DNA of 64,000 nt from Melampsora larici-populina 98AG31 (Eukaryota; Basidiomycota; Pucciniomycetes; Pucciniales; Melampsoraceae). The stretch covers positions 124,001-188,000 of the forward strand of contig NW_006768851.1 in NCBI RefSeq assembly GCF_000204055.1. Reading direction: 5' to 3'. Shown piece by piece: positions 12,314 to 52,817 of this stretch (positions are counted from its first letter, which is position 1; the number at the start of each line of letters is the position of its first letter). The notes beneath the pieces were generated by a model. The model saw only the letters and a program-made list of their open reading frames with translations, made no database searches and was not told where the DNA came from. The translations under genes and the position numbers were made by a program.

Positions 12314-13113
12314 AAAAATACACTCTTTCTGTTCTGCTGTGCTGGTTTTTCTTTTCTTTGTATATTGTTTGTTGAATTTTCTCCCACTCCTCTCACTTCC
12401 AATGTAACATGTTAAATATGTGGCTTGTTGAGCTCTAGTGCCCGAAGCTACATCATGTTCCAACTCATCTGGGCTCTCAATGAAATTTACTAACCATTTT
12501 CATTTTATTTCTTTTGTATATATTTCATGGCTTATTGGTGCTATCTCCTACGCTCCTTGCTGTTATTTCATGTGTATATACTTCATGCTTTATTGGTGCT
12601 ATGTCTGATGGGATTCAATATATACATGGTGATTCTTGTCCACTATACTAAGGTTTACTTTGAAGCCCTCACAGAATTCTATATTATTCCACATGTCATG
12701 AGCACATCTTCCACACTCAGCTCTGATGTCAAACCCAAAGTTCACATGAGAAGTTTGTGTGAATCTGTGGTAAAGATCCAACGTGTCATACTGCAACTAT
12801 CCGGTGTGCTCTGGCCATTCAAAGGACCGAGCCAGCAGATTTTATTTGTAAGACTTACTAAATTTGGCTGTTATAGTTCCAAACTAACCCTTTACCCAAA
12901 GGGCTTGATCAATTCGGTTCTTTTGAATTTGATCACTTTTACCACCTCAAACGCATACTCACCCCTGGCCAACCCTTCTGGATGAGGTAGATTGAGTGTA
13001 AGACTGGTGAACTAGTGGTGAGTTTGTCCACTAATGGCATGTTTGAAAACATCATATTTTCATCTGACTATCCATAATCCTATTATCTCATTAATAGGTA
13101 CGATCTCAAATCA
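12314..13113. other. Spacer between the accessory gene and transposase
   Basis: An open frame at 12527-12985 is hydrophobic at its start and has no recognisable domain. It may contain 5' exons or promoter of the transposase. An acceptor-like TTAATAG lies at 13091-13097, just before the transposase ATG, so an upstream exon is possible. Confidence 0.35.
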
Positions 13114-16100
13114 ATGATGTGGTTTGGTCCAAATCATATATGCTGTTCTTGTACACAACTTGGATGTGTGAATGAACTATTCCAACGAGATGGCCAGACG
13201 CACAATGGTCGCCTGTTCCATCGAACAAACTACAAACATCATCTCACAAAACAAAAAAAAGTAATTCCTCAAGCTTTACCTGAAACCGAGAGATCTCTAC
13301 CGCCAATAGCGACATCATCCCAGAATCCGCTTGACTCTCTATCTTCAACCACCTTGGGTGAAGGAGCCTCACACCCTCGGGTTCAACTATCTAGTACCCT
13401 TGATATGGACCAAATTTCCAGCAACAAACGAAGAAGAGGTGATGATGAATCAGACCACACTTCATCAAACAACCCACGGCCCAAACATCCTCGTATTGGA
13501 CATCAATCTACGTTTGAATATGCCCCGATGGTTACATTTGCAACTGCACCTTTCCGAATTCCTCGAACTCTCTTCCAAAGGGTTTCAAGTACCCAATCCA
13601 TGTTCCATGTGATTGACGACTATCTCAACCACAACAAGAGCGAAAAGAGTTGTCGAAAAATGTTGGCGATGGAACGCTTGAAAGTCAAAACAGCACTTGC
13701 GTCAAAATCAACAAACTCGAGGGAAGTGTGGAAAGAAATTCCACTTACTATTGAAAAAACTATCAAGTGCTTTCACCTCTTTGTCCCATTAGATGAATTG
13801 ATATCATGTCGAGTTTGCTTTGCAATGTATGGCAAAACAAATTCTACGGGCTTAACACCAAGTCGTTGCACCGAAAAACGCTTTCCGTCAAAAACTTCTA
13901 CCAAGCCAAAAATCATCTGCAATGCCTCCCTCTACAGGCCAAATTTATCCGATCCAACCAAGATGAAACCTCGCCGTATCTTTTACCACCAGAGTTTTAC
14001 AAAATGGCTTGCTCGGATGCTTTCTTTTGACACTTTTGAACAAAGTCTTGAAGCTTCGATATCAGCCAAACCACTCTCAGATGGACGCATGACCGACATA
14101 TGGCATGGGACCATGTGGAAAACTTTCAAATTAGATGGAAAGGTCTACACAAAAACCTCGGGAAATCTCGTATTTGGTTTTTTCTGTGATTGGTTCAATC
14201 CGTATGGAAAGAACTCAGTTCGTAATGTTTCAGTAGGTATCATGCTCATGGTCTGCTTCAATCTACCTCCAAACATTCGATATCAACATCAGAATTTGTT
14301 TATCTACGGCATCACCCCCGGACCTCGTGAACCCACTTCCGAGCGAATGAAACATTGCCTCTCCCCGCTTCTGAAAGAACTTCAAACACTTTCAAGTGGT
14401 ATCTTTTTCACTGAGACAGCATTGAACCCTCAAGGTCGAACAATCCGGGTGGCATTATGGCCTCTCATAGCCGATGTACCAGCGATGAAGAAGATTTCAG
14501 GATTTTCTTCACACAATTCAACAAATTTTTGTTCGATTTGCTACATAACTCTTGAGGATATTGACATAGTCAACCCAAATACTTTTAAATGTAGAAATCC
14601 TCGCTCTCATAATATTCAAGTTCAGAATTGGAGCAATGCTCCTACTGCCAAGAAGCGTCAAGAACTCTTGAAAGAAGATGGAGTCCGATACACCATTTTT
14701 TCCGAATTACCTTACTGGCATCCGATCAACTTCCCAACCATCGATATCATGCACTGCCTTGTACTGGGTCTGCTCAGAGATCTGTCCACCACTTATCTGC
14801 AAATTGGCGCTGCCGGAAAGAGTTTGCAAAATGAACAAGATCAACGAGATCTTCGTGGTGAATACTCCGATGATCCCTCTCCATCTGATGATGACAAGCC
14901 AATGGAAGATGGTACAGTGTCATCGATTCCTTCCTCGGACTCAATATTGGATCAACCTTCTAGTCTTCCTTCTAGTCTTTTGGATCGTACACATTACCCT
15001 CGCCAAGCAAAATCAAAGAGCTCTACCCAGAGCTCCAATGACTCATCTCAACACTCTTCCGAATCTTCCAATTCTGTTGTATCCAATGAAACAATCACGG
15101 GGCATCCTGCTGGCCCAGCACTCACTCCCCACGAGCTCAGAATCCTTCACAAATGTATCACAGCCACACATGTTCCGTCATGGTTGACCCGTGTTCCCAA
15201 AAAAATTGGCATGGCTCAATGTGGCACTCCCAAAGCTGCAGAGTGGCTAACAATGTACACGATATATGTAGTACTTTCATTGATTCCATATCTTCACAAT
15301 TCTGAACCAAATAGCGCGTCAAGGAGAATTCACACGGCCTTTACACTTGCCACCCAAATCCTCAACATAGCCATATCACGATCTCTGCACAAACAAGACC
15401 TTCAGTCACTCTCAAGACTTCTTGTCGAGTATCGCACCCACCTTCAAGCTGGATGGCCAACCATCAAATCCAAACCCAATATACATTATGCTCAACATCT
15501 GCCGGAGCAAATCCGACGTTATGGTCCCCCTTCTTACACTGCGTCATGGTTTGGAGAACGTACAATTGGGACCCTGGTTAAAACTCCGAAAAACAAACAT
15601 CAAAGTATGTCTTGTGTTTTACTAAGTTTTCTGCTGACTTCTGACCATTTTTATTTTTTGAACATCATAGGCATTGTTGGGCAGACAATGATCCGGCGAC
15701 ACACCTCTAAGGCATTGTTTTCAAATCTTTGCAACAACATTCCCTCTAAATATGCTGAGACCATAGGTGTGCATACTCTATTTCATGCAAATCGGCCCAA
15801 ATGGACAGCACATTCAATCTCTCCCGAATGCTCTCAAGCTCTAAGTCTACTCTTAACTCGATTGGGTATCCTGGGGTATTCAAAGACTGAGAGCACTTCG
15901 CTTTGGCAACACGCAGGGAAATCATTCACAATATCTAAACGGCACATAGGAAATAGTCGAATCGAGTTCAAAGACCAAGGTAATACTACATTTGGTGAAA
16001 TAGTCCACATTTTACGTGTGGACTCTCATCCAGGTCCTCTATTTGTCATTCGGCCCTTCCGCCCACTCACGCATTTGGACGAGTCAAAGAGCCCGTATCA

Positions 16101-16377
16101 CTCGTACCCATACTTAAAAGCCAGGGTTATGTACCGCCAACCACTTCCATTACGTGTCATTGCACTTGATGACCTTTTTGGCCACAGTGCTCTGGTTGAG
16201 AACGATGCTGGAGCAATGAACATCCCAGCCCCCACTGTAAATCTGATTAGCTTGCGAAGTTTGGTAAGCACTAACATTTCTGCACTTTTAATCTGATACT
16301 GACACTTTTCATCGTTAATATAGGGAATCTCGGAGATGGCATCTACATATACAGATCTAGATCCAAAACCGACTTAA
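13114..16377 (+). CDS. CACTA-type (tnp2-like) transposase, about 1045 aa
   Basis: This is the probable DNA-cutting transposase of the element. Exons read as 13114-15604, 15671-16263 and 16324-16377; both introns have GT..AG ends and keep frame. The N-terminus has a Cys/His cluster (CCSCTQLGC, then H residues). The centre shows DGRMTDIWHGTMW, a Cys motif FCSICY, and FPTIDIMHCLVLGLLRDL, which corresponds to the DxMHxLxLG motif of tnp2 transposases. A Ser-rich insertion follows. The C-terminal part has KPNIHYAQHLPEQIRRYGPP and SWFGERTIG, which resembles the DUF4218-type region found with tnp2. No stops or frameshifts were found. The start ATG is the first in frame, though an upstream exon cannot be excluded. 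Confidence 0.82.
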
Positions 16378-23983: not shown

Positions 23984-24214
23984 CGTTAAAGAGCTGATCT
24001 GTGCCACAAAATACCCGCTCTTCATGATCCGCATCGCGCTTGCGAGATGGGGTGTGCGGTACATATACGGTACATGGACGTGTCGTCCGACTACGGTACA
24101 TTTGTGTAAACAAGCTCGACCCGCATGAGTTGGATGTATGCCTGACAATCAGTGTGAGACGTTTTCATTCTTTCGCCCTTTGCTCTTTTGTACCAACATC
24201 ATTAGCTATCCTTG

Positions 24215-27200
24215 ATGCCTCGCGACGAAGATGACGCTATCCTATCACTCGAAGGGTTCGCACTCGAAGGTCTGCTTACTGATCTGCACCCCGAAGCGTT
24301 TTCCGGTTTACGTGGACAACTTGGTCTCAGTCATGCAAACATTGGATACGGTCGAGAGGATCTCTACAACGGGAAGTTTGCTGACGATGATCCAGATATC
24401 CCGTCCAATCAAGCGGATGAGAATTCTCGGATAGCTCGCAGTAGTCTCTTCGGATCAGGTAGTGGAAGAGACTGGGAAGATGAAGTAGACAAAGAGTTTC
24501 AAGAGGACAAAGATCGACTAGTCTATGGCGGACGAGCTCCGATCAATAAAGTTAGAGGAGAAATTGATGATTATGACGACGACGATGATGAGGAAGAGGA
24601 AGAAAGTCTAGCTGCCGATAGTCCTCAAATGTATCGAAAGGATCCATCCAATCGACAGGGACTTCCTAACATCCACTCATCCTCCACGGCTACCTCTTCA
24701 TCTCCTGGACCTACAACGATTTCGCCAATGCTTCCCAAGCCCCTACGACCTGAGCAAGTTGACCTCGAGACCTTGTTCCCCAGCTTCATCCCCCACACCG
24801 TCCTTGAGTTCACTGAGCTCTTCTCCACTTTGCCTCGTAAGCGACAAAAGACCTCGAGTGGTTACGTGAACATACGATATCCACAACCTCCTCAGCAGCA
24901 CATTTCCACCATCAAATACCTCGATGGCACGGTATCAATCCCAGTTTCAAAGACTTCTCATCAATCTAAATTCCCACAACTACTCGAAGAAGCATATAGG
25001 GATCTCATTCACAAACTTCCACCTGAGATACCTGTGGCATATGATACAATGGAGACTGATGGCAAGGGCGATACTTCTGATCACGAACTTGAAGCAATTA
25101 CGCAGGCCAATACGTCGCGGGGTGCTACGCCTTGGAAGCTGCCAACGGACGAACGGGGTTGGGAAGCATTGACTATGGCAGACTGGGAGGACGGTATTGT
25201 ATGGCAGCCTGAGGTTTCGCAGAGCAATTCCTCAGCCCGACCTCTTGATACACTCACTAGATTGACACGTCCGCGGAATCGCGCAATCGAGGAAGGTGAC
25301 TGGCTAAGAAGTGTAATATGGGACGCGAAGAATGGAACGTGGAAGGACTTTACTGGTTTGGAGCTATTGCCCCAAGATGTTGAAAAGGATCCCCAACCTC
25401 CAGACCCACTTGCAACTGTGATCGATAGCTCACTTTCTCCACAGAAGCAATCATCTACAGCAAAAGGTAATCGGCCACAATCCCTGGATCCATTCAATCT
25501 TTCCAATGACCGCCTTTATGAAGTCTCAAAAGAACAACGCCGTCGCGTCCGCCAGACGTTCGGAAACCTTGAAGTCCAGCATTCATACCCAGCGTTGAAA
25601 CTTCACTTTCCATTGGTAAGTCGGACATACTTTGCCCCGTGTGACATGCTTATATTCACCGTGCGCTAAATCATGCTACTCTCCATCAGTACAAGACTCG
25701 GCTCACTAAACACGAAGCCCGTTCCTTCCACCGACCTGCCCTACAATTTCCACTCAACATTCCCATCAAATTCTCTCGTGTCAAGATCGCCAAAAAGAAG
25801 AAAGATAAAACCGGTCGTAAGATACGCAATACCGCTGTTGCATCCGAGTTGCTCAAAACTACTGCGGACTTGACGTTGAAAGATACGGGTGCATTTATGT
25901 TGTTTGAATATTCCGTGAGCTTCGCAGGTTTGTGTACGTGTGTTGGCTCCGTTTCTCATTATCATCTTCATACCTTTAGGAAGAGGCGCCACCTGTAATC
26001 TCAAATGTAGGCATGGGAAGTATACTTGTGAATTATTACCGAAAGAAAAATGCTAATGATGAGTATGTGCCGAAAGTTTGTCAACGGTCTTTACTTATCG
26101 TTTGTGAGATCTGTTGACCCCTTAAAGCATGATCTGCTTTTATACGTTATCATACGTAGGATGATCTAGGTGAACCATTTGTGCTAGATGTTGCCGATGC
26201 ATCTCCATTCATGAAGTTTGGCAGTATTCCACCCGGAGAAACGGTTCCAACACTTTATAACAACTTAGTACGCGCTCCATTGTTTAAACACAAAGCAAAC
26301 GAGACAGATTTCCTAGTGATCAAGTCAGCCTTCATTCTTCCAAATAGTTATTGACAATGTCACTGACTGGAAACATATCTATAGGAGTGTGACAGAGACA
26401 GAAACAAATTACTATATAAGGGCAATCGAGAATGTCTTTGTGATCGGTCAAACGTTCCCAGCTGTCGAAGTTCCGGGTCCACATTCTCGAAAAATCACGA
26501 ACCTGACTAAGCTCAGACTCCATAACATTGCCCAGCGACTCACTGAGAGATCGACTGATTCAAGACTCAAAATTCAAACTTTGATGAAATATTTCAACGA
26601 CCAAAACGAATTGCAAATGCGACAGAGGCTGAAGGTGAGCCTCGCTTTGCATAGATGCTGTGATTATTTCCAGAATGTCTGGCCAGAAACGAGATACATT
26701 TAATCTGATAGCTATCTGTGCGCGTGTGGTATGGGGATGCCAGGAATTCATGGAGTATGTTCGCAGAGGTCAAAATCAAGGATACTGGACAATGCGAAGC
26801 AATTTCAAATTGCCGGAAGATTTGCTCAAACTCTCCACCCCAGAATGGGTTTGTTTAGCTGAAAGTATGCAAGTAGGGCAACGTCAATTGTTAGATGCTG
26901 GTTATGGTAAAGATGCAGATGCAGAAGGAGATGGAGAAGACCAGAGTAAACTAGATATTGAACAACAGCTTGCTCCTTGGAGTACAACTAAGAACTTCCT
27001 ACAAGCAGCTCAAAGTAAGGCAATGTTGAGACTTTATGGTGAAGGTGATCCTTCAGGTCGAGGGGAAGCATTTAGTTTTATCAAGGTCTCGATGAAAGAA
27101 GTTTTTCTAAGGTATGGAGAAACTATGGAAGATCGACAAGGTGAGAGACATGCATCGCACCTGGATTAATACAGAAGATTGATCTTTGAATGTTTTTACA

Positions 27201-33480: not shown

Positions 33481-33541
33481 GACAAAACGGAACCTGGGGA
33501 AGCGTGGGCTATCTGTGGACCTCAGGCACTCTAACTTGACT

Positions 33542-33586
33542 AGGTCCCTATGCTTCTTGCCGCGAGCTTGTGAGCATAGGGACTTA
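33542..33586. repeat. Left sub-terminal hairpin of the DUF6589/RecQ element
   Basis: GTCCCTATGCT pairs perfectly with AGCATAGGGAC across a loop of about 19 bases rich in GC. The right end carries the counterpart at about 41458-41497, GTCCCTCTG pairing with CAGAGGGAC. The loop sequences differ between the ends, so pairing rather than sequence appears conserved. Confidence 0.75.
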
Positions 33587-33845
33587 CGGGTTATCTCGGT
33601 TTTCTTGGTGACAAGCACAATTACACCAGGGGGTAAAAGTCACCGCACGCAAACCAAAACCGAGACCTTTCAGAAACGTCTCAATTCCAATTCAGTTGAG
33701 ACGTTTCTGACACGTTTTCAGAAGGGACGTACACAAAGGCGTCCCCGTCACCAAACTATCACGTCCCAGAAAACCAGAGCAGAGTGGTCTCTTTCACCGT
33801 TCCAGGGACGCGCTGTGGAACGTGGTCGGAACAATTTGACGTGGG

Positions 33846-33947
33846 GGGCAAATGCTCAAAAAAGGAGAGCCCAGAAAGACTTGAACACGGGCTCGCGGCC
33901 AAAAACAAATCGTAAACCATCGATCTCCAAACCGCTACACCATAATG
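33846..33947 (-). other. tRNA-like sequence (A box, B box and T-run), probably degenerate
   Basis: On the minus strand, TGGTGTAGCGG resembles a pol III A box. GTGTTCAAGTC resembles a B box some 45 bases later, and a run of six T follows. I cannot fold matching acceptor or T stems, so this is not a working tRNA gene. It may be a SINE head or a captured tRNA remnant. Confidence 0.35.
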
Positions 33948-34139
33948 TACATAACATTTGTTCACTCTCAAAGTATATACTCCAGATAACGATCGCGAGT
34001 GTTTTATATTTCTCAGATCTTTTGATGATATAATCAAATTGACCTTTACATATTTTGTAGATTTGTTTTCGTTTTTTGTTTTTTGTAGTTTTACCTCAGT
34101 TTAGTCGAGGTTGAGATCCTGATTTTATGTTTCTTAGAT

Positions 34140-34718
34140 AGGAATGAGATGCTGTCCAAGAAAGCCATAAAGGATTGTTGCAACACCAACAGCCACATTG
34201 ACCAACATATTATATTTATAATTAAACCTTTCACCAGCGCTTAAGAAAGCGAGATGAGCCAGAAACATAGCCCTAAGGATGGATTTAAGTTGACTGGCGT
34301 AGTAAAGCCTAAGTTCGAGTAGAAGATGATGTTTTGCCTTGGTAGGATAAAGTCAAAAGAATCTCCCACAAGCCAAATAGAGACCATAGAGAGCATAAGC
34401 AGCGGCATTGAAGTAATCTAAACGTTTGGTCCAAGGTTTATCTCGACAATGAAAGATTGTATTTCAAATCCAAGCGTTCATCCCAACAAAGGTATTACCC
34501 CGGTATAAGTTTTGTAAAGGCCATGAATGAGGGATAGTAATGTTCAATTTATAGTAAGAGAATAGATAAGTAAGTAAATTAAAGATACTAAAGAGAGCAG
34601 ATAGACGTTCCCAAATCACATGCCAACATCTGAAAGGCCATTTTCCATGAAACTGCACAATTCTACCAGGAGGTAAACCTTGGAGTTCAACACCAGGAGT
34701 TCCTATATTTGATTCCAT
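34140..34718 (-). pseudogene. PER1/PGAP3-like fragment (GPI-anchor lipid remodelling)
   Basis: PER1 (PGAP3) is an ER membrane protein that acts in lipid remodelling of GPI-anchored proteins. The minus-strand frame reads VQFHGKWPF, then a hydrophobic segment, then FVGMNAW, a stop, NTIFHCRDKPW and KRLDYFNAAAYALYGLY. These match the family's QFxGKWPF, MNAWFWSTVFHTRD and EKLDYF blocks. Stops replace expected Trp codons at about 34463-34465 (the W after NAWI) and near 34360. The N-terminal Cys-rich part and the C-terminus are missing. It lies inside the TA-inserted element, so it is probably a captured and decaying copy. Confidence 0.72.
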
Positions 34719-35456
34719 TGTAAGTAGTGTTTCATCTTGAAATATTTAGTTCCAACATCCTTTTTAAATTTCTTTATTGATCGGAAAAGGCTTGGTACGC
34801 TTGATGAGTGACGAGAGCGAGTGAATAACACAAGCTATGGACACTGAGGTCCTTCAAGTCAACCGTTTGTTGATAAAAGGTCATTAGTGACCTTATAATC
34901 CACACGGTGTCTGTTCAAATAAGTGACAGTTTGTTACCATTGGCAAACAGTGTCAAGTTCCTGACACCGGGTGACACGGTTTTCAATACAAAAAGGTGTT
35001 TCGGTGACGGAACACGTTTCTCGTCGGTCACTGACACGTAACTTTTGAAAACGTAACAAAAACCGTTCCAGGCCGAGGACGTTTACCCCCTGGTGTACCT
35101 TTTGGTGGGAGAAAACCGCACCAAAAGAAAACTTTTGCATTTAATTACAACTTTTTTTTTAGACTCAAACATTACCATTCAGCTTCTTCCGCATCTTTCC
35201 ATCTCCTCACTTTTTTTTATTCTCATCAAAAGCAAAAGTTGTGATTGACCTCAAACTTCGTACTTTTGAAATTTCAAAAATCTGTATTGCTGCGTGTTAC
35301 ACAAATGATAAGTTGTATGTAATACGAAATTTTAAATTTGACAGCTCATCAACAATTGTGGTCGAGCGATATCTGCAGATCTGCAGGTAAAGGGTTTCTG
35401 GTTTTGAGTGAGAGTTTCGTGATATCACCACAAGTCTCCATTAAAACACCACCAAA

Positions 35457-38440
35457 ATGGATCTTGAATCAAATTCATCGTCTTTTGAAGAAGAACCACC
35501 GGACAACAATCCACATCCTGACAAACCTGCTGAGCACCAAACAATCAAGGTATGTGATTTTATAAATGAGCTTGGAATGACACCGAAGTCTTTCCTTCAA
35601 AACCTTATTGATTCCGATAAGCCTGCGGTAATCAAGTGTCGTCAATTCTTTGGATCAGCAACTGGATGGCCATCGACACTGAAAGTCATTGAGACTTTCA
35701 AGACTTTATTATTCAAGCATCGAAAAAGGAACAATATGGACAATTGGAACGCTTTCATATTGAAAGAAGTATGTGTAGACCATGCTATTTTTCTTTGCAA
35801 AGATTACTTTAAATTATTGAAGTGTTTCCTCATGATGAACTTTCAATTGATTGATGTAGGCAAAAGAGATTGTCAATTGTGAAGACTTGCCTAGGGGCGA
35901 AGCTCCAAACGGAAGCTTTTACAATGCCGGAAAAGTCGACCATTCATTTTTCAAGCCGGATTCAGAAGTTGCTCACGATGATAGCCTCAGAACCCATATA
36001 CCATTCTTACACGCCATTCTCTACTCGGAAACCGAAACATCAATCATTGCTCGTGATCTAGTTCGCAAAAAAAATCAGCAAAGGCAAAGAGTAAAGCAGA
36101 ACTTGAAGGCAAGGAGACGAACGATGAATCTCTGAATGATGGTGAATCAAACAGACTTGACTCAATGAGACGTAAACTGGACGCTTCGTCAGTGAAGGAT
36201 ATGGAGGGTGTTTCACATTCGCAAACAATCTCTCCAGGTGATGTGGAACAGAAGCAATTAGTTCAAGTAAGTATTTAAATTTCTTTGTTTTACAACCCAC
36301 ATTTGTATTCATTGAACTTGAACTGACTATTTTTTTGGCATATATCCTTTCAGGTTCCTGTTACAATCCTTTCCATGATAGCCTTTGTATCTAATCGGCG
36401 TTGCAATGGAAAGCAGCTACAGAATTCTCTCTCATTCATTGCATGCGGTGTCTCTGAGCGTATGAACGATTATCTACACTTCCTCTGATTGACTTCAAGT
36501 CGTGAAACTGGACTCACAGCAATGGACACCTTAGGTCACGCCTGCAAGAAATTGATCAAGAGTCGCATGGCTGAGAAGTACAACTTATATCCTTTTATGA
36601 CACTCGATAACATCGACATCCAAGCTCGTATCCACAATACACGGATAGAATCAACCACCAAAATGTTTCATGGGTCTTATGGATATCTACATTTTTTACC
36701 CGGCCATCTTACAAAAGATATTGATCCAAATGAGGCCACTGTCGAAAATCTTCTCAAATGTGTTGAAAAGAGTCAATCAGAGCCCTTCGAACCTTCATCA
36801 ATGTTACCTGATCAGAAAGATGATGCGCACTGGACATTAGTTCTGAAATCTCAGCTTGCTGAAGCGCTAGTCGAATACGAGGTCACACCAAATTCCGCTG
36901 CTCACATTGCCTGTAAAGAATCACTTGCCCTTGTTCCACCTCCAGTCGACACAATTCAAATGTACACTCTCGATATCATGATGCTAAAAATGATGAGTGC
37001 TTCAGATAATTCTACCAGCGGTGTCTCCGATATGCTGGGACAATGTCAAAAACAGACAAATGAAGATCCAGTTGAATTTGCAAAATTTCTTCGGGTAATT
37101 GAAGGTGATATGGGCACATGCCTGAACTTCAAATCTTTAGTCCGACAGCGCTTTCCCGCAAGGCACGCTGACGAAGCTCTGTCAAATGTTCTGAACATGC
37201 CTGGTTTGGCTCATTCACTATGGAATGTTGCAAGCAAAGTTTTGAGCCATCACTGGGGGAATTCAAAAGATTCTTGCGACACTGGGGTTCATCGGACTGC
37301 TGGTGCGCTTGGAATGAAGCCCAATAAACTTCCTTCACAACAAGATTTTAATTCTTTGATGCAGTTAATCTTCAAAAGCCACACTGCAACACTCGTCTTC
37401 CTTTTGAGGTATGGACTTTTGATCTTGATTAGGATTAGCTGTCTTGAACCAACTCAACTGTTTGATTCCACACAGGCAAACCATACAAGCTCGCGAAGTT
37501 CTGGTTGATTTAAAAGACCCTGGAGTGGCGCAGTCTATAATTGATGAATGCTATGAGCAATACTTCACCATTAACTCCTTATGTGATTCATCTAAAACCG
37601 GGGATTGGACCTTGTATAATCTGCGTCTACGCCTTAGAGACTTCGCTTCAATTGTCAAGGGTGATAAGGCAATGAGAGTTGGTGACATAGGACGTGTTTT
37701 ACTGATGTGGAAGCGATGGGCTGTTATGGCTCATGGTGTGAAGGGATTATCCCATTATGCAATACATCTTCCAAGATTTATATTGATTCTAGAAAAATAT
37801 CTACCTCCTAAGATTGCAAAAGCGATCAAACACAGTCTTCTTATTCCAACTGGCGGTCGAGAAGGACACTGGGTTGCAAAAGACTTTTATCTTGAGATTC
37901 AGAACTATTGGCTGAAGTATTTTTATAACAACTCTGTAAGTAATATTGAATTGACTTCTTTTTTTCAAAGAACAAGCTAATTTGCTTAAACTTTGAAATT
38001 AGGGGCAAGGGACTGAGATCGAAAGGCTAATGGAGAGATTCTCAATCTTAATACCTTTGGTAATGTCTGATCAACCATTGAACAAATCCAAATCAGAAAT
38101 TTGAAACTAATATTGATGTTTTTTTTCTGAACAGCTACGAGAACTGATACACCAAATGAAAGTAAGATCCGGTCTCAAAGATATCTATCAGAACAATAGA
38201 CATGTCATCACGCCTCAAACATTACAGAACTTTTTACGCATGGCTCAAGTCCACTTATGCGATCCAGAACTCTCTCAAAAAACACGTGATCTCGATAATA
38301 ATGATGAAGTGGATGATATAGAGGTTCTAGGAATTGAAAAGCTCTTTTCAATTGTTCAGGAGGAGGCAAGAAAAAAGAAGGATTCTCGATTCTCATGGGG
38401 TTTGATGAATGTCATCAACACAGTTTCAGAGTCAGTCTGA
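35457..38440 (+). pseudogene. DUF6589-domain protein gene of the 8-kb element, with two lesions
   Basis: DUF6589 is a domain of unknown function found in many basidiomycetes. Six exons read as 35457-35768, 35860-36266, 36354-37408, 37476-37935, 38003-38059 and 38135-38440, all with GT..AG introns and agreeing phases (about 865 aa). Matching blocks include MIAFVSNRRCNGKQLQNSL, LDNIDIQARIHN, HGSYGYLHFLP, FVRRYHALN-like text absent here, ADEALSNVLNMPGLAHSLWN, and near the C-terminus GREGHWVAKDFYLEIQNYW. Two lesions break it: a run of eight A at 36067-36074, where a multiple of three would keep frame, and an in-frame TGA at 36486-36488. The run could also be an assembly error. A transposase role is my inference from its place in the TIR element. 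Confidence 0.75.
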
Positions 38441-38550
38441 CAAGCAGTTCAATTGGTGGTTAATTCTAAATGTATTTTTGTTCGATAGCTGCTCAATTTA
38501 AAAGCCAACTTCTTTGAAATGATAAAACATGTTCATATCCTCAGCGCTTT

Positions 38551-41070
38551 TCAACCTTGTACACTCGGAGGTTTTATCTTCTTCTCTTCGCGTATTCTCT
38601 TCCTCTCAGCAATACCAGCGTCTTTGACAGCTTTCTCGGCGTCTTTGATAGCTTTTGCAGCAGCTTTTAATCGTGCTTTTTCAAGAGCTTCTTCTTGCCA
38701 AAGAGCTATTTCCTTTTGTCGTCTATCACGCTTTTCTTCTTTTGACTTTTCAGCTTCAGCAGCTTTCTCTTCGCGTATTCTCTTTCTTTCAGCAATCCCA
38801 GCATCCTTTAAAGCTTTCTCAGCCATTTTCAAACGTGATTGCTCACAATGCTCTTCTTCCACTAGTTCGAGATCCAAGATTTCTTGATCATTCTTGATTT
38901 GAATGTCCTCCAGCTCCTCTTGATGTTTCTTGAATGAATCACTTGTAAACCAACTCTGAATGCATTCATTAATACTACCAAAGTGTCCAGGTAATTGCTC
39001 ACCACCTAAAATTCCTCTGTGAAAGATGCCATTCTGGACAGCAGCATAGTTTTTGACGATTTGCCAAGCATCCTCCTGTTTGAAGAGAGTCGTGGGTTTC
39101 ATATGACATCCAGAAGGATAAGCTTGAGTAAAAAGTGCTTCGAAGCTTTCAGTAAGTGCGGCAGCTAGGTCATTCATAGCCGGGTTCAGTCGTATTGGAT
39201 CATCCATCTTACAAACAAGTGGGATCCCAGCAGCAGCCTTTTGTTTTGTAGCTGCCTTTGTTGGTTGAAAAGCTGTTATGTCTTTGGGTAAAGTTGGACT
39301 AGAATCAAGTAGTTCCTCTAGATCCGCAGATTTTGTATATGGTAGCAGTCGGATGATTCAAGCAGCAGCTTGAGGCTTGCAAGTTGAACATCGACATGCT
39401 GGCATTCCAATAGATTTTTTGTGGTCAATCTCTGATAGATAACCTGGATCAGACTTTGACATACATAGGGATGTATCCCTTGCTATAGATTGCAGAGTTC
39501 AGATTGATCTATCTTAGCATGTATAACAGAAATTCAGTTTTCAAAGAAGACTTACAGGTTATCCAAAGCGTAAACTACTCTAAGACAACATGGTGTCAAC
39601 CAAAACGCATTCATTCTTTCTTCGTTGTTCATATGGCCTGAAACTTCAATCTTGTCGATAGAGTTTGCACAACCTGGCATAGTCGGCTGAACAAAGATTA
39701 TAACTAGTCCGGGATTGTCTTTTCCGCGCCCAGCTCTTCCACCCATTTGATTGGATTCGGATGGGTCCATCGCGCCCATGATTACCACAGCTTTCACATG
39801 CTTCCAGTTCTGACCTAAGCCCAAGGCTGAAGTGCAAGAAAATATGGGAAATTTTCCCTCACCAAACTCCTCAGCTCGCACAAGCTTGTCTTTGTCACCA
39901 ATAGCAGAATGATATCTTCGGATGCAGCTACTGTTTCCATCACGTGCTTCATCAGGAGTACCACGAGCCTCACAAACAACTTTTGATACAGTACTGGTCG
40001 TGTTTCGAGTTCCAGAATATATTAACATTGGTGTCATTTCATCGTTTGAGACTCGTGATTCTGGAGGAATTATGAGTTTCAAATCATTGGCTGAATCGAG
40101 CGTAGAAGACAGGTAGATTCGAATGTACCACAGTTCTGGGCGTACAAGCTCGGCACGAATCATTGTCATATGTGCCGGAGTGATCCTCAAGCTGTCTTGG
40201 ATTGCTGAAATTGCTTGAGGTCGGCAAGTTGCTGACATGAGTAAAATCGGCACGTTGTCTGACGCCATCAGCTGTAGTCCAATATTTCCATACGAAGGCC
40301 TAAATTGTCCAACATCTTGAGGAGTGACATGGATGGAAAAGTTTCTTGATTTTCCACTTTCCTGTAGGCCCCAAAGATAAATACAATGGGCTTCGTCGAC
40401 GACTTTCAAAACTAGATGACGTTGAAACTTTTTGCTATGGTAAAGTTTTTGAAATTCTTCACTGTTCAAGAATATCTCCGGGCTCTAAAAAGGCAGATAT
40501 TTAGGCCATGTCTCAATCTTATACAAGTAAAAAAACATACAAGATAGATGAAAGAGTAATAGTTCTGCTGCGAATCTCTCAAAACTGCTTCGTTGAACGT
40601 GTTCTTGGTCAGGTTTACCGCAGTGATGCCAACTGCTTGCTTCTCCAAAACCTGAATCAAGATCACAATTGTGTGAGTGGAAAGTGTTGTTGACTTCCAG
40701 GTAAAAGATTCACCTGATTGTCACCGAGTGAATCCAGCGGGTTCAATACCAGTATGACTGGCTTCTTTGCTTTACTAAACATATGGAAGAAGAGTTCTGG
40801 AACTCGACTTTTCCCAAACCCCGTTCCAGCAAGTAAAAAGGTGATGTCACCGTTCACCAGGCTGGCCGCCGTGGTTATCTGTTCATCCTTTATATCGTAG
40901 GAAGGGTATTTTTTTTTGAACTTTGAAGCAACTGCTTCGTTTTGGTCATGAAGACTTGAAGCAAGCAGTTTATTGCTCAAAGTCGGATTCTCAAGCTCAA
41001 GATTATGCGAAGGTGGAAGTTGCTGGGGCGGGTTCGCCTGCGTATCACTTCGAGTTCGTCTTTTAGACAT
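38551..41070 (-). pseudogene. RecQ-like DEAH helicase gene of the 8-kb element, with one in-frame stop
   Basis: Exons read as 41070-40714, 40651-40541, 40484-39556 and 39478-38551, all phases agreeing (about 774 codons). Helicase motifs in order: AGTGFGKSR (Walker A, residues 81-89), LNPLDSLGDNQ (Ia), YLSPE (Ib), VVDEAHCIYLWG (II, near 185), LLMSATCRP (III), LIYSGTRNT (IV), FSCTSALGLGQNW (V) and QMGGRAGRGKDNPG (VI). DEAHCI followed by a W is the RecQ form of motif II. After the core come CRCSTC, a possible zinc-binding remnant, and a Lys/Glu-rich coiled coil with two copies of KDAGIAERKRIREEK. An in-frame TGA at 39358-39360 lies between CRCSTC and the coiled coil. It would remove only the tail, so a shortened helicase could still form. 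Confidence 0.82.
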
Positions 41071-41513
41071 CAATGCTTAGAATACGATGAAACAGATCAA
41101 TTCAAAGCGTGTTGATCGAGGTCAATTGGTCATGAAGGTCAACAGCTTCTTGACGAACTCATCTTTGTCGATTTGAGAAAGTTCAAATTTGGATTCGATG
41201 TTTACATGACACATGTAATATCACCCGCAGTCTTTTTTTGAAATTTCAAAAGTACAAATTTCGAGGTCAATAGCAACTTCTGCTTTTGATGAGAATAAAA
41301 AATAGTGAGGAGACAGAAAGATGTGGAAGAAGCGGAATGGTAATGTTTGAGTCTAAAAAAAAAAGTTGTAACTAAATGCAAAAGTTTTCTTTTGGTGCGG
41401 TTTTCTCCCACCAAAAGGTAATCGTGCTTGTCACCAAGAAAACCGAGATAACCCGTAAGTCCCTCTGCTCGCTAAAGCTCGCGAGGCACAGAGGGACTCT
41501 GTTAAGTTAGTCG

Positions 41514-41859
41514 GGCACTCATTTGTTCTCAAAACGTATTCAAGCTAAATTGCATCGATAATTTGCTCGTTTGTTTGTTGGTCCAGATGGCTTCGTTTGG
41601 GGTCTGAATGCAAGTCCACGCGAAGGATGATGAGGAATTATCTTCAAGAACGAGGATTCATGGGTTGGGTTGAGACGTACCCGTTCAGAGCCATACACAT
41701 GACTTCTCTGAAAGCCATAATGTTAGGTCTCAAGTGATGATATACACGCTTCTCGCCTTGAAATCAAAGCAAATTGTCAACTTTGGGAAACGCACCGAAC
41801 GTAACCCCAATCGCCACAACACTCGTTTCCGACAACGACCTCCCGATCAAGCCCTCAAG
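41514..41859. promoter_or_regulatory. Probable promoter and 5' leader of the eL8 gene
   Basis: Only 346 bp separate the end of the 8-kb element from the eL8 start codon. The stretch has no open frame of note. It must hold what remains of the native promoter, unless the element supplies part of it. Confidence 0.45.
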
Positions 41860-46471: not shown

Positions 46472-47167
46472 TTATAGGGATCAATTGAGTGAATAGCAAG
46501 ATTCAATTGCTCATAACTCATAACCTGTTGGGCTGGATACAAACCAGTAAACATTAGATAAAAAGAGAAAGAAACTGCTGATAAATTAAATAAGATTGTG
46601 AGTGATACAGTCAGATGAAGAAAAAGAAAGACTGAAACTGTATCAGGGTTCAGGTTATAAGTAAAGCAAAAACAAGAGAACAGAAAAATGAAATCATATG
46701 ACGTCACAAAATGAAAACATGAGAGAATGATGTCATAAGATGAATTTGTGGAATGTGAAATAAAATAAGATGAAATGTAAATTACATGATAATATAAATG
46801 GACATTCACCTTTTAAAGCAGACATACCGTCTTTCTTGAAAAGCTTGTCCCAAAAGCTTTCAAGGACTAAAGGTTTGTTTGTAAATCTAAAAGATGATCA
46901 GGCCAATCGAGCTGATCTTGAGTAAGCCAGGTCAGGTTTGACCTGGCTAAAGAACCCGATCCGTCTCCTACCCCGTCCCAATATCCAGATCTGATCAAAG
47001 ACCTCAGGTTTCCTAGTTGGTACATATTGGTTTTTAGCCATCGATTCTCCCATTCCCTCATCATCACCATCATTTTCTCATTTCTGCTATGTTCTTTGTC
47101 TAAATTCAACGTTTCCTCTTCAAACTTCATCTTGCTTGACCCGGTACTATCAACATCTTCAGAAGAA

Positions 47168-48464
47168 ATGCCTTTTGTAAAGTATGATCCCGCTATCAAG
47201 GTTGCAGCGGTTCATCTGTTGTTAGATGGAATGACAGACGACCAAGTACACAATGTGTTGCACGAGCCTTTCCACTCGAAATCACTTCGCCGATGGATGG
47301 ACTTGTATCATCAGACCCACGCCGTCATCCGCAATCCTCACGACTACAAACAACGAGGTCGACCGTGTGTATATGGACCAGCCAACCGCGAATTCATTGA
47401 GGAACTGGTCCGTACCAACTCGACCCTATTCTTGGACGAGATACGCGCTCAGGTCTATGACAAGGGGGGCATCTGGGCTTCTATTTCAACTTTACAAGTC
47501 GAGCTTCATCACCGGTTACACCTCACTCTTAAGAAAGCCAATGTGAGACATTCAAAAAGGTCAGCTTTTGCACGACAGAAGTTACATGACGAGCTTAGTC
47601 AGTTTCCAGCAGAATACCTTGTTTTTACCGGTAAGAAACTTCTATGCTTGTACACGTCCCCACGCCTAGGATTTGTAATCATCGGGTTTGCAACAGGCCC
47701 CGGCCCCGCCACTGCATAACTTGAATGATTACGTAAACCACTTGGAGGGGACTGTACAATCCAACATGACATTGAACATCTATACTGACTTGGTATTTCA
47801 ATCCAATTCTAGATGAGAGTGCAATATGCGAGAGGGACCTATTGAGGTTCAACGCTCGATCACCTCAAGGGACACCGGCTTATGAAACGGTCCGTAATAT
47901 GTCTGCCAAGCGATACTCGCTTTTGCCAGCTATTGGGGTGAAGGGAGTTTTAGCGGTTAAGGTGAAGGAAGGCAGTATTAAGAGAATGGATTTTGAAAAA
48001 TTCCTGAAGTACAGACTGGTAAGTCTTTTTTTGTTGTCACAGCAAGTCAAATGTTGACAATTCTTTGTATTGCATGACTCTAAGTTACCTCGGATGCAGC
48101 CTTATCCGGCTCCCAACAGTGTCTTGATTCTGGACAATGCCCAGATTCATCACGGTGGGCGGATTGCAAAGTTATGTCGCCAAGCAGGTGAGTTGCAGAC
48201 ATTATTGGTGTTTGGTTGGACAGTTTCTGACAAGGAGTTCTTGTTTCAGGTGTGATGCTGAGGTATCTACCTCCGTACTGTCCTGACCTGAATCCGATTG
48301 AAACAGCTTTCAGCGTGCTCAAGAGCTTGTTTTGTCGAACACAGTCCTTGCAATATGCAGCCGATATTAAGGGTGAAACAATTGATAGAACATGTGAGAT
48401 AATGGATCATGCCTTGTGTAAGAGTTTGTATTTGTACTCTGGTTACGAAGAGATTGGACTATGA
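47168..48464 (+). CDS. Tc1/mariner-type DDE transposase (328 aa)
   Basis: Four exons keep one frame: 47168-47630, 47813-48018, 48085-48187 and 48250-48464. The N-terminus (KYDPAIKVAAVHLLLDGM) is a helix-turn-helix region that would bind the TIRs, followed by GRPCVYGPANREFI, a second helical domain. The catalytic triad is visible: DESAI (first Asp, about 47814), LILDNAQIHHGG (second Asp) and LPPYCPDLNPIETAF (Glu), the DDE pattern of Tc1/mariner transposases. No stop or frameshift was found, so it may be active. The ATG at 47168 lies at the start of the conserved text; an upstream in-frame hydrophobic extension is unlikely to be translated. Confidence 0.85.
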
Positions 48465-48649
48465 CAAAGCTTCTGAACCATCTTGTATTAATTTACACTA
48501 AATATCACTTAACATACATTATTGAAGCTCACCACCTTATTTACTGGATATTAAGAGATTTTTTACAATGTCTATGATGAAATTATAGCAGTATTGTGAC
48601 ATAGTTTTATTTCAAATTAAACCGATGTCCAAATTAAATATAAAGTAAC

Positions 48650-49165
48650 CAATTCTTAGATCAGTAAGTAACATATGAAAAAATTTGCCAATGGAAACAC
48701 ATACAAGTTTTAAATGAGTAAGTAAGATAATGAAAAATTGAACATGAATTTTTCATTTCTCAAATGAGTAAGAAACATATAGAGATCTTTGGGGATTAAA
48801 AATCAAACATAAATTTTACATTTCTTGAATGAGTAATAATGAAAAAGTGAACATAACTTGTACAATTTTTTAATGAGTAAGTGTCATAATGAGGTCTTTG
48901 ATAATGAACAATATAATGAGTAAGTGTCATAATTTTCAGTAATGAATAATATCCAACTTTCCAATGAGTAAGTATAATAACAAGGTCTTTGATAATAAAA
49001 AATATCCATTTCTTGAATCAGTAACTATCATAATGAGGTCTTCAATAATGAAGATTTGAAAAATTCTTGAATGAGTATGTATAAATGTATGAAAATGAGC
49101 ATTGGATAATAAAGATTTGATCAATTCTTCAATGAGTACGTATAATAATGAAGTATTTGACAATG
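48650..49165. repeat. AT-rich degenerate tandem repeat
   Basis: The word AATGAGTAAGT, with variants, recurs about every 50-65 bp, followed by TATAATAATGAGGTCTTTGATAATGAA-like text in shorter pieces. It lies between the transposase and the accessory genes of the Tc1/mariner-like element. Confidence 0.65.
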
Positions 49166-49185
49166 AAACAGTTAAAATAAGATAG

Positions 49186-49866
49186 TCAATACGGCTTATA
49201 CCATGTTAAATTGTGCATAGAATGGCTATCGTGACCATTGCGAGCCTCGAACAATTGCTCCTCAAGCCATTGTTTTCTCTCCTCCTCAGGTTGTTCATAG
49301 TATTGTTCTGCATTGGATGAACTCCGGAGGACTTTATGAGCTAGTTTGTAATCTTCTGGGGTGAAAAGCCAGTCCGGCCCGTAGTTTTGTACGTCGGCAA
49401 GAGCACCCTTGAGAAAGAAGAAGTTGGTATGAGCCTCTGCCTGCTTCTTTGAACGCCAGATGGCAAGGCTGGCCTGGGTCCAACGGTGTAAGTCCAATCG
49501 TTTGCGAGCGTCCTCTCGCTTCCATCGATTTCGATCACTTGCGGTTGAACTCTTGTGATTGCAATTGACATGGACCTTTAGATAGTTTTCAAAGTCCGGA
49601 AGTTGGTCTGAATTCCAGTACGGCATCAAAGGACATTTGTCAATGCCTGCAATAGTGATTGAAGATATGAATCAAGAGTGGATCATAACAATATCCATAT
49701 AGAGCTTTGGGTATCTTTTAGGATGAATCCAAGGGATTCTACCTCCCACCATGGGCTCGCGGTGATACTTTTGAGGCCCTGCAGCAAATGATATCTTGGA
49801 ATTATCATAGTAAGCCTTGATTGCAACTTTAGCCTTTCTTTGGGGTTGCTTGCGTAGTGGCGACAT
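49186..49866 (-). CDS. Accessory gene 1 of the Tc1/mariner-like element, unknown function
   Basis: The start reads MSPLRKQPQRKAKVAIKAYY from 49866, with GGRIPWIHPKRYPKLYMD. A second exon (about 49650-49186) contains DKCPLMPYWNSDQLPDFENYL, RWTQASLAIWRSKKQAEAHT, YGPDWLFTPEDYKLAHKVL, and ends in NLTWYKPY. It is basic at the start, then mixed and Trp-rich. The join of the two exons does not keep frame with the splice sites I see, so the model is incomplete. I recognise no family. Location inside the TIRs makes it element-borne. Confidence 0.5.
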
Positions 49867-50368
49867 TGTTTTTAAAATTTATGAATTGATGTTAAGGAAT
49901 GAAACAACAAGAAATCTTTATATTAAAGATTTCTCAAAGGTTTTGATCATATTGATCAAGTCCAAATCCACAAGCTTGTTGTCCATCATGATGTCATGAA
50001 GTTCAACTCAAGAAATTTGATCGGGCTGGTCTCGCTTCTTTTGGATCACTAAAAAAAACTCTGCAAGTTAAAGAACTGCATTTCAAACAGACAAAAGGAA
50101 CACAACAAATCAATCATTTCGCATTATTCAGTTAATGATAATGTAAAGTACAATAGGATGGGCAGACCAGTCAACTAAGAACCTACATAATCAAAGATAA
50201 GATTGATACAAACTGAGATACACACACAAGACACAAGATTACAATGATAAAGGATAATTTGAAACCCAATTTGAAATATCCAGACATTTGCGATCACTTG
50301 AAATTACCATGTGGATATATACAGGGAAACACAATTAATAATAATAGTTTGAATTCTTAAAAATTATC

Positions 50369-51907
50369 TTATTGAATGTTAGACTCATTCAAGTGTTTGG
50401 CAAAAGCCTTTACATTCATGTACAATCTAGTGACTACACCTGGAACCAGATTCAATTTGAGTAAATCCTTGCGAGGCAGGAACTCTCTGTTGAAAAGAGT
50501 GTACTGATCCAAACCTGCCTCAGTCAGACAAGCCTCAATTGATCGGTCCTCATCCTTTATACCACAAAAAATCAGATAATCTGCTATTGGAGCAGACAAA
50601 GACGTGCTAGTACTCCCTTCGGCTGCATCAATGGGTGGTTGTACAATAGAACCCATGATATGCTTGAGCATGTCGGTGATGGCGGAGTCCCCACTAGAAC
50701 CAGGCTTCTTACGCTTGAGTTGTTCAGCGGATTGGCTCAACCATTGAATTCCAGCTTTTGGTGGTATACAGGTTGTGACTACCTGCGTTCCTTTAGAATC
50801 ACAGACCAGCTGACAATGGAAAACAGGTCAGAATCAATCAAAATCCTATTGTTTAGAAGTCTCACCTTCTCCTTTGCCCAGATTCTAGACATCCCGGCAG
50901 TGATGTAAAAAAATCGGTCAGTCTCCTTTGGGTCCACATAAACTGGGATGGACTGATGGTAGCTGGGTTTGATCGGGTTGTGTTTGTAAATCAAATCGGC
51001 CACAATTTTCACCGCATCAGTGTCAGTATCACCTCCAGTGCTTTCGCAAGACTAGGTGTACAAAAACAAATACTGTTGATCAGTATTGGTCAAACTAAAA
51101 GTCAAATGTACACAGCTTACTTCCAATGAACTATCACTTGGACTTGGAGGTTCTGGATCATCGTCTAGGGCTAGTTCTTCTGCTGTCAGACCTTGGTCAC
51201 CACCACAGTGGGTTTTCTTTGAAAGTTTTTGTTTTTGTTTGCGATCATGACGACGGGTGATCTTGGCTGCTTCAATCAAAACGGCTTCGTTCTTCCAAAG
51301 CCCAAAAATTAGCCAATTGATTGTGCAATGAACGGTTACACGCACCTTTCTTTTTTTTCGTTGAGCCAAAGTGGGGTTCTCCATTACTAGCTTCAGACCG
51401 CAAACTTTGTCTTTTGAAGCGTTACAGATATGTAACCAATCGTTCCATTCGGCATCGTTGGTAATGAACTTGACTCGGTTGCCGCTCTTTGGGTACAATC
51501 TGCTAGTGGCGATATAAGCTTGCCATTTCAAATCACCTAAGCTACCCTCTCCTTTATCAGCAGCGCTTAGCACAGTGGCTGCCTGCACTTCCGATTTCTG
51601 GATTTCAAATAAAACTTGAAGCCTTGCATTTCTGAATGATGAAGTGTTGATTTCCAAAAGAAAAACCCTAATTTTGTTGTCTGGCTTGGCAGACTCCCAT
51701 GACGGCTCAAGCCCGGCTTTTTTCCCGGATTTGATCTTTGGAACCCAAATAGTGTAATCAACCAAGGCATTGATGCCAGTGTCAAAAACTGGATTCGTCA
51801 CAACCTATAAAGCCAGGAGAAACAAAGACAAAAGTTATCAGCCTACATGATGTATGACACTGACTGTGAGCATATCAACTCACATCAGAAGTTGGACTCA
51901 TAGCCAT
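50369..51907 (-). CDS. Accessory gene 2 of the Tc1/mariner-like element, SAM-like C-terminus
   Basis: It starts MAMSPTSD at 51907, then an intron, then VVTNPVFDTGINALVDYTIW. Further text reads NKIRVFLLEINTSSFRNARL, WQAYIATSRLYPKSGNRVKF and a Lys-rich stretch. Later exons continue with IPVYVDPKETDRFFYIT and GIQWLSQSAEQLKRKKPG. The last about 70 residues (PIADYLIFCGIKDEDRSIEA through FLPRKDLLKLNLVPG) have the length and hydrophobic pattern of a SAM domain, which mediates protein-protein contacts. That fold assignment is inference. Exon borders are approximate. No stops were noticed within exons. Confidence 0.55.
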
Positions 51908-52036
51908 GGTTTATAGCAGAGCCATCTGAGCAGACAAAATGCTTTAAGAAGATCATTAATGGGTCAGTATTTTTGGCAGAGGATCGATTAAAAGGAGATC
52001 ATTTAGAGGTAACAGAGCAATTAAAGGAGGTACGGT

Positions 52037-52303
52037 AGGACCCCGGTATGCTCCTATAAGGGGTAGTCACATCAAAATATATATTTTGAGCTCCCGCGGG
52101 TTTACGCTTCATGGTATTATGCACTAGTCTTTGAGGTTTTTGCCGGTTTTTGCCTATTTCAGAGTGGCTTCAATATACAATACAGCTCATTTGAAAGATT
52201 AAACTGTCTTAGAGTTATGGGTCCAGCCAGTGACTTATCTCCGCGGGAGCTCAAAAGATATATTTTGATGTGACTACCCCTTATAGGAGCATACCGGGGT
52301 CCT
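52037..52303. mobile_element. 267-bp MITE with 8-bp target duplication
   Basis: GGTACGGT flanks both sides as a perfect 8-bp direct repeat (52029-52036 and 52304-52311). The TIRs are about 60 bp and nearly identical, starting AGGACCCCGGTATGCTCCTA and including GAGCTCCCGCGG. An 8-bp duplication suggests mobilisation by a hAT-like transposase; none is encoded here. Confidence 0.85.
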
Positions 52304-52817
52304 GGTACGGTGGGATGGACTTGAATCCTATCAATCCCCATCCCAAAACCATTAGGTTAACCGTGAGCTGGGGAGGTAGCAGCCTTAATCTTATCAGTGC
52401 GCCCCTGAATTCCCCAACTTGAGTGATATAGTGCTGGATTGAAAAGAGTGAAGGAATATACGATAATATTGAAAGAAACCTTCTCTCCTTACCTGTTGTT
52501 CCAATATGATTTTAGGGAAGTCGCAGCCAATTTCGAAAAGAAAGGAAATGTGAGGTAAGAGGAGTGATTGATCAATCGATGATATCAAAATCCAATACCA
52601 AAAACCGGATAGCCAGGATGGAACAAGGATGGGACCGTCAGTTCCTTTGACCACCGGTAATATGAGACGGGTAGGAGACGGATCGGGTTCTTTAGCCAGG
52701 TCAAACCTGACCTGGCTTACTCAAGATCAGCTCGATCAGCCTGATCATCTTTTAGATTTACAAACAAACCTTTAGTCCTTGAAAGCTTTTGGGACAAGCT
52801 TTTCAAGAAAGACGGTA

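What the first reader, a model, noticed from the sequence alone, without database searches (positions are those of the whole stretch)
33531..41513. Candidate new transposon class: TIR element with a DUF6589 gene and a RecQ-like helicase
Long inverted ends (about 280 bp), a 9-bp target duplication with one mismatch, and just two convergent genes define a discrete mobile unit. DUF6589 has no assigned function that I know, and RecQ-type helicases are not usual parts of cut-and-paste elements. The simplest reading is that DUF6589 is the transposase or recombinase and the helicase assists copying or integration. Seen: ends, duplication, gene motifs. Known: RecQ motif order. Inferred: the catalytic role of DUF6589.
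Basis: partly seen in the sequence, partly recalled or inferred. Interest (0 to 1): 0.92.

Follow-up and report, generated by a model that had tools for sequence, protein, structure and literature searches.

The report
AcademH-type helicase-carrying fungal DNA transposon
The stretch is an old, damaged copy of a real jumping gene that carries a probable transposase and a RecQ-like helicase; it has many relatives in this poplar rust fungus and fits a transposon group that has already been described, though the protein family of the probable transposase is still listed as of unknown function.

Summary
The element runs 33531-41510, with CTAACTT...AAGTTAG ends, inverted repeats of about 280 bp and a 9-bp target duplication with one mismatch. 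It holds two convergent genes: PF20231/DUF6589 and a RecQ-like helicase.

It has many relatives. 22 of 28 end pairs show a 9-bp duplication with at most one mismatch, against 0 of 20,000 re-pairings. Two copies show closely similar ends without use of the motif.

It is probably not a new class. Fungal Academ elements with recQ_fam helicases (PMC6416283) and AcademH elements with 9-10 bp duplications (PMC10045372) are in print. DUF6589 = AcademH transposase is an inference; no paper in the held library contains "DUF6589". The structure prediction that would test a DDE fold never ran (35 tries, all busy).

The parts
33522..33530 (.). left target-site duplication TCAGGCACT
33531..33623 (+). outer part of the left terminal inverted repeat (begins CTAACTT; last two bases are the TA duplicated by the nested element)
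33624..35095 (.). separate nested transposon inside the left repeat, TA duplication, ends CACCAGGGGGTAAA, carrying a Per1-like gene fragment
35096..35280 (+). inner part of the left terminal inverted repeat
   Evidence: I1, I2
35457..38440 (+). DUF6589 gene (probable transposase), several exons, start and end inferred from open frames; in-frame stop at about 36486-36488, so this copy is broken
38551..41070 (-). RecQ-like helicase gene, convergent to the DUF6589 gene, start and end inferred from open frames; C-terminal part rich in charged repeats (by eye); in-frame stop at about 39358-39360
41235..41510 (-). right terminal inverted repeat (ends AAGTTAG)
41511..41519 (.). right target-site duplication TCGGGCACT (one mismatch to the left)

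Best explanation
This is a decayed copy of an AcademH-type DNA transposon of a rust fungus. Shown: the unit, its CTAACTT ends, the 9-bp duplication, the frequent pairing of a DUF6589 gene with a convergent RecQ-like helicase gene, near-identical copies elsewhere, and 566-674 bp elements that have the same ends and are too short for the two genes. Inferred: the DUF6589 protein is the transposase (probably a DDE/D enzyme); it recognises the CTAACTT ends, frees them and joins them to target DNA with cuts staggered by 9 bp, and gap repair makes the duplication. Also inferred: the helicase opens DNA at the ends or target, or helps repair and replication of the intermediate, and the short elements are moved by proteins made elsewhere.
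For: 82 of 94 merged DUF6589 loci have the helicase convergent and downstream within 8 kb, 1 has another arrangement, 11 none; about 0.02 expected per locus by chance (hit lists capped). 22 of 28 end pairs have a 9-bp duplication with at most 1 mismatch, 20 of them perfect; one more has an exact 8-bp one; 5 have none. 11 of 35 DUF6589-helicase pairs on contigs C1-C17 (35 of the 80 pairs) are flanked on both sides by exact, properly oriented CTAACTTAACTAAG, 5 on one side; 9 of those 11 have a perfect duplication. Three copies are at least 99.9% identical over 4,143 bp; two of them lose identity exactly outside CTAGCTTAAC...TTAAGTTAG, and one of these two has a perfect 9-bp duplication. Prior art matches: AcademH makes 9 or 10 bp duplications and carries a helicase (PMC10045372); fungal Academ copies carry PF00270 and recQ_fam CDD:129701 domains (PMC6416283). 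Conserved acidic residues in rust DUF6589 proteins (37-row alignment, 29-37 rows covering each; numbering of P0001): D304, D468, E628, E707 at 97%, D637 and D703 at 100%; D301 is invariant in the 13-row alignment.
Against: No Academ reference transposase could be compared: the AcademH paper is not held and no Academ sequence is on hand. A profile of 13 DUF6589 proteins found one solved chain at E 0.6, chance level, and the Pfam scan of the 13 gave DUF6589 plus two weak families, each in one member. 19 of 35 pairs on C1-C17 lack the exact end motif on both sides; 44 of 128 helicase matches have no DUF6589 match within 8 kb. No duplication was seen at 5 of the 28 end pairs, nor at the C28 copy, nor at a 1.5-kb pair of ends on C83 that I left out of the 28 (1 of 9 matching by eye). 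For the helicase of the C49 copy, DpdF (E 3.1e-14) scored ahead of recQ_fam (E 1.7e-12).
Confidence: 0.82

Rival explanations
1. The DUF6589-helicase elements are a superfamily of their own, with a transposase unrelated to Academ, that resembles AcademH only in having a helicase and a 9-bp duplication.
For: No sequence link from DUF6589 to any named transposase was found.
Against: Duplication length, helicase type and host group agree with published AcademH/Academ descriptions.
Confidence: 0.12
2. KolobokH: a Kolobok element with a RecQ helicase, known only from fungi.
For: KolobokH carries a RecQ helicase and is found in fungi; Kolobok-1_CCri of a red alga has a RecQ helicase on the complementary strand (PMC9587614 passage).
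Against: [quoted passage not shown] here it is a separate gene on the other strand. Kolobok duplications are TTAA (recalled); here they are 9 bp of varied sequence.
Confidence: 0.03
3. The inverted repeats belong to another element that happens to surround unrelated host genes.
For: The left repeat is interrupted, the copy is degenerate, and 19 of 35 gene pairs on C1-C17 lack the exact end motif.
Against: The same gene pair lies inside the same or similar ends with duplications at many sites.
Confidence: 0.01

Closest known systems
AcademH DNA transposons (Kojima 2020, Mob DNA 11:15; paper itself not held, known here through passages of PMC10045372 and PMC10799480)
   Same: helicase in the element, 9-10 bp target duplication, found in Basidiomycota; inverted repeats as a DNA transposon (recalled)
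   Different: Transposase homology not tested here; no paper of the held library contains the word DUF6589
Fungal Academ elements with recQ_fam helicase domain (PMC6416283, passages)
   Same: DEAD (PF00270) / recQ_fam domain inside an Academ element that is often annotated as a host gene
   Different: The passages seen do not describe DUF6589 or the ends
KolobokH (PMC9587614, passages)
   Same: fungal DNA transposon with a RecQ helicase
   Different: [quoted passage not shown] duplication recalled as TTAA
AcademX (PMC10045372, passage)
   Same: same superfamily as AcademH
   Different: nuclease in place of helicase and 3-4 bp duplications

Membership tests
AcademH | 9 or 10 bp target-site duplication | tested here: met
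   22 of 28 end pairs with 9 bp, at most one mismatch; window copy 8 of 9; definition from PMC10045372
AcademH | encodes a helicase | tested here: met
   RecQ-like helicase in the window and beside 82 of 94 DUF6589 loci
AcademH | terminal inverted repeats (recalled as a feature of the family) | tested here: met
   about 280 bp arms
AcademH | transposase homologous to Academ DDE/D transposase | not testable with these tools
   no Academ sequence on hand, paper not held; structure jobs never accepted
AcademH | occurs in animals and fungi, including Basidiomycota | tested here: inconclusive
   host is a rust fungus (Basidiomycota); among the 60 homologues those that bear a name are from Melampsora or Puccinia; no animal homologue was seen, but the searches are limited by shared words
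KolobokH | TTAA duplication (recalled) | tested here: not met
   9-bp duplications of varied sequence
Helitron | no inverted repeats and no target duplication (recalled) | tested here: not met
   inverted repeats and 9-bp duplication present; helicase is RecQ-like

The most novel reading that the evidence does not exclude
DUF6589 is a transposase type not homologous to Academ or any described DDE superfamily, so that these elements form a separate superfamily in which an unrelated recombinase and a RecQ-like helicase together make 9-bp duplications, perhaps by a replicative route driven by the helicase.
Probability: 0.1. Interest if true: 0.75.

Novelty: new member of a known kind. Interest (0 to 1): 0.36.

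Why it matters
It gives a function to test for DUF6589, a Pfam family of unknown function: AcademH-type transposase. It also shows that many RecQ-like helicase genes in this rust genome lie beside a transposon's DUF6589 gene (82 of 94 DUF6589 loci). One comparative paper calls RecQ helicases a variable effector class enriched in rusts (PMC9370660, passages); some of that enrichment may be transposon genes, which I did not test.

Tried and rejected
Rejected: that the repeats merely surround host genes (independent copies); Kolobok (duplication); Helitron (inverted repeats and duplication). A 3,355-aa 'open frame' with helicase similarity was an artefact of a run of N. Wider homologue searches: searches scored only the 8,000 candidates sharing most words and one search had 64 candidates; hits with a name were rust fungi, so absence from agarics or animals is not shown. 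Literature: 'DUF6589' in 0 papers of the held library; searches for Academ with helicase, AcademH, Academ superfamily, RecQ with Melampsora, fungal Academ, XPG and Kolobok did not bring the original AcademH paper. Papers were seen as search listings or passages only.

Rows left out of the 28 end pairs: the C83 pair (no duplication by eye); C25 and C28 (reported apart); from the list a 2.6-kb pair on C8 and three very short pairs (52-75 bp) on C1, C3 and C16, which I did not fetch; sites beyond C18, which that call did not list; and matches without two recognisable ends.

Full report
Observation. The window holds a transposon at 33531-41510. Its outermost bases are CTAACTT and AAGTTAG, and it is flanked by TCAGGCACT and TCGGGCACT, a 9-bp duplication with one mismatch. 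Inverted arms of about 280 bp were found. The left arm is interrupted: 33531-33623 and 35096-35280 together pair with 41235-41510. The interruption, 33624-35095, is a different transposon with ends CACCAGGGGGTAAA and a TA duplication. A 99% identical copy elsewhere in the genome has the same ends and also sits between TAs. It carries a fragment of a Per1-like gene (PF04080, E 2.2e-14).

Genes. On the + strand, two open pieces match PF20231 DUF6589 (E 1.5e-26 and 8.5e-32). A protein of Melampsora americana (P0021) aligns to the window in five pieces from 35502 to 38080, at 35-79% identity. One stop, at about 36486, lies inside an aligned coding stretch for both P0021 and P0001; the other stops in the aligned pieces fall where introns are likely, which is my inference. 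On the - strand, the helicase matches Helicase_C (E 3.8e-7), the recQ and recQ_fam models (E 1.2e-11 and 8.1e-11, below their curated cut-offs) and helicases Q5 and Q4 among solved structures (E about 3e-4). The DEAD match is weak (E 0.007). In the helicase a stop at about 39360 lies inside an aligned stretch, and another at 40487 lies at a likely intron. So this copy appears broken in both genes.

Family. DUF6589 gives 104 matches (102 of 248 candidates scored), which merge to 94 loci. The helicase gives 128 matches (128 of 201 candidates scored), from 100% down to 36% identical to the window copy. 82 of 94 DUF6589 loci have the nearest helicase within 8 kb, downstream and convergent; 1 has another arrangement and 11 have none; about 0.02 per locus is expected by chance. 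44 of 128 helicase matches have no DUF6589 match within 8 kb. These lists are capped, so missing partners may be unscored.

Ends and duplications. I compared both flanks at 28 end pairs: 16 of element size (5.9-14.5 kb) and 12 short ones (566-674 bp). Of the 16, the C32 pair has a helicase match but no listed DUF6589 match, and the C3 pair holds the locus of 'another arrangement'. 20 pairs have a perfect 9-bp duplication, 2 (window and L088) have 8 of 9, one short copy (L096) has an exact 8-bp duplication, and 5 (C17:1340332, C7:2005960, L087, L091, C40) have none. No other length scored more than 2, and 0 of 20,000 random pairings of flanks from different copies reached 8 of 9. The pairs were picked by the end motif or by similarity to the window's right end, so the ends were not independent of these; pairs left out are listed in Tried and rejected. 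As a motif-free check, two copies of a divergent subfamily (C25, C28) are 100% identical in their end stretches up to, and not beyond, CTAGCTTAAC...TTAAGTTAG; C25 has the perfect duplication TTAAAAACC and C28 has none. The exact 14-base end CTAACTTAACTAAG gave 100 listed sites on C1-C18 (list cut there); with one mismatch allowed there are 649 sites against 356 for the reversed pattern. Of 80 convergent DUF6589-helicase pairs within 4 kb, 35 lie on C1-C17: 11 are flanked within 7 kb on both sides by exact ends in the right orientation, 5 on one side and 19 on neither. Of the 11, 9 have a perfect duplication and 2 have none.

Activity. Three copies are at least 99.9% identical over 4,143 bp, and the closest relative of the window copy (C29, helicase 88% identical) has nearly identical outer repeats and a perfect duplication. 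Some short copies are 95-98% identical to each other. The family has therefore probably moved recently in this genome; the window copy, with more diverged repeats, is likely older.

How it works. The unit has two proteins. The DUF6589 protein is the likely transposase, unless a host enzyme or another element's enzyme is used. Its conserved acidic residues (D304, D468, E628, D637, D703, E707 at 97-100% of covered rows; numbering of P0001) and four histidines at 100% (H503, H516, H686, H698) suit a metal-dependent DDE/D enzyme. The alignment holds rust proteins only, which limits this argument; D301 and D304 lie outside the Pfam domain, which covers 358-753. No fold could be computed and no solved relative was found. 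Joining the ends to cuts staggered by 9 bp would give the duplication. The helicase most likely opens DNA for cleavage or for repair; PMC10045372 suggests that the difference in duplication length between the helicase-bearing and nuclease-bearing Academ lineages is related to these enzymes (passage).

Known relatives. AcademH elements have a helicase and 9 or 10 bp duplications (PMC10045372) and occur in Basidiomycota, Ascomycota and Mucoromycota (PMC10799480). Fungal Academ copies carry PF00270 and recQ_fam CDD:129701 domains and are often annotated as host genes (PMC6416283). The window element meets these features. The remaining one, a transposase homologous to Academ, could not be tested. 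I therefore call it an AcademH-type element and a new member of a known kind. What I did not find in print is the link to DUF6589 (held library only).

Surroundings. The window also holds a Transposase_21 gene, a DUF3591 fragment, an SPX-RING gene piece and another pair of long inverted repeats at 46825-52817.

Noticed in passing
window 33624-35095: A nested TA-duplicating transposon (ends CACCAGGGGGTAAA) carries a fragment of a Per1-like gene (PF04080); an inner part of about 594 bp is 94% identical to a stretch on contig C7, possibly the source of the captured gene piece.
   Followed up: partly
window 13078-16296: 1,072-aa open frame with Transposase_21 (PF02992, tnp2, E 4.4e-16), a CACTA-type transposase (type recalled).
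   Followed up: no
window 46825-52817: 149-bp inverted arms, 99% complementary, beginning TACCGTC and ending GACGGTA, about 5.7 kb apart; no matching duplication seen next to the ends.
   Followed up: partly
window 24206-25669: Open frame with the start of a DUF3591 domain (TAF1-type, recalled).
   Followed up: no
window 5326-6222, - strand: Open frame with SPX and RING zinc-finger domains, probably a host gene.
   Followed up: no
G000 C40:464088-464688 (locus L034): A short element of about 600 bp whose two 25-bp flanks are inverted copies of each other with one mismatch, so it may lie at the centre of a larger palindrome.
   Followed up: no
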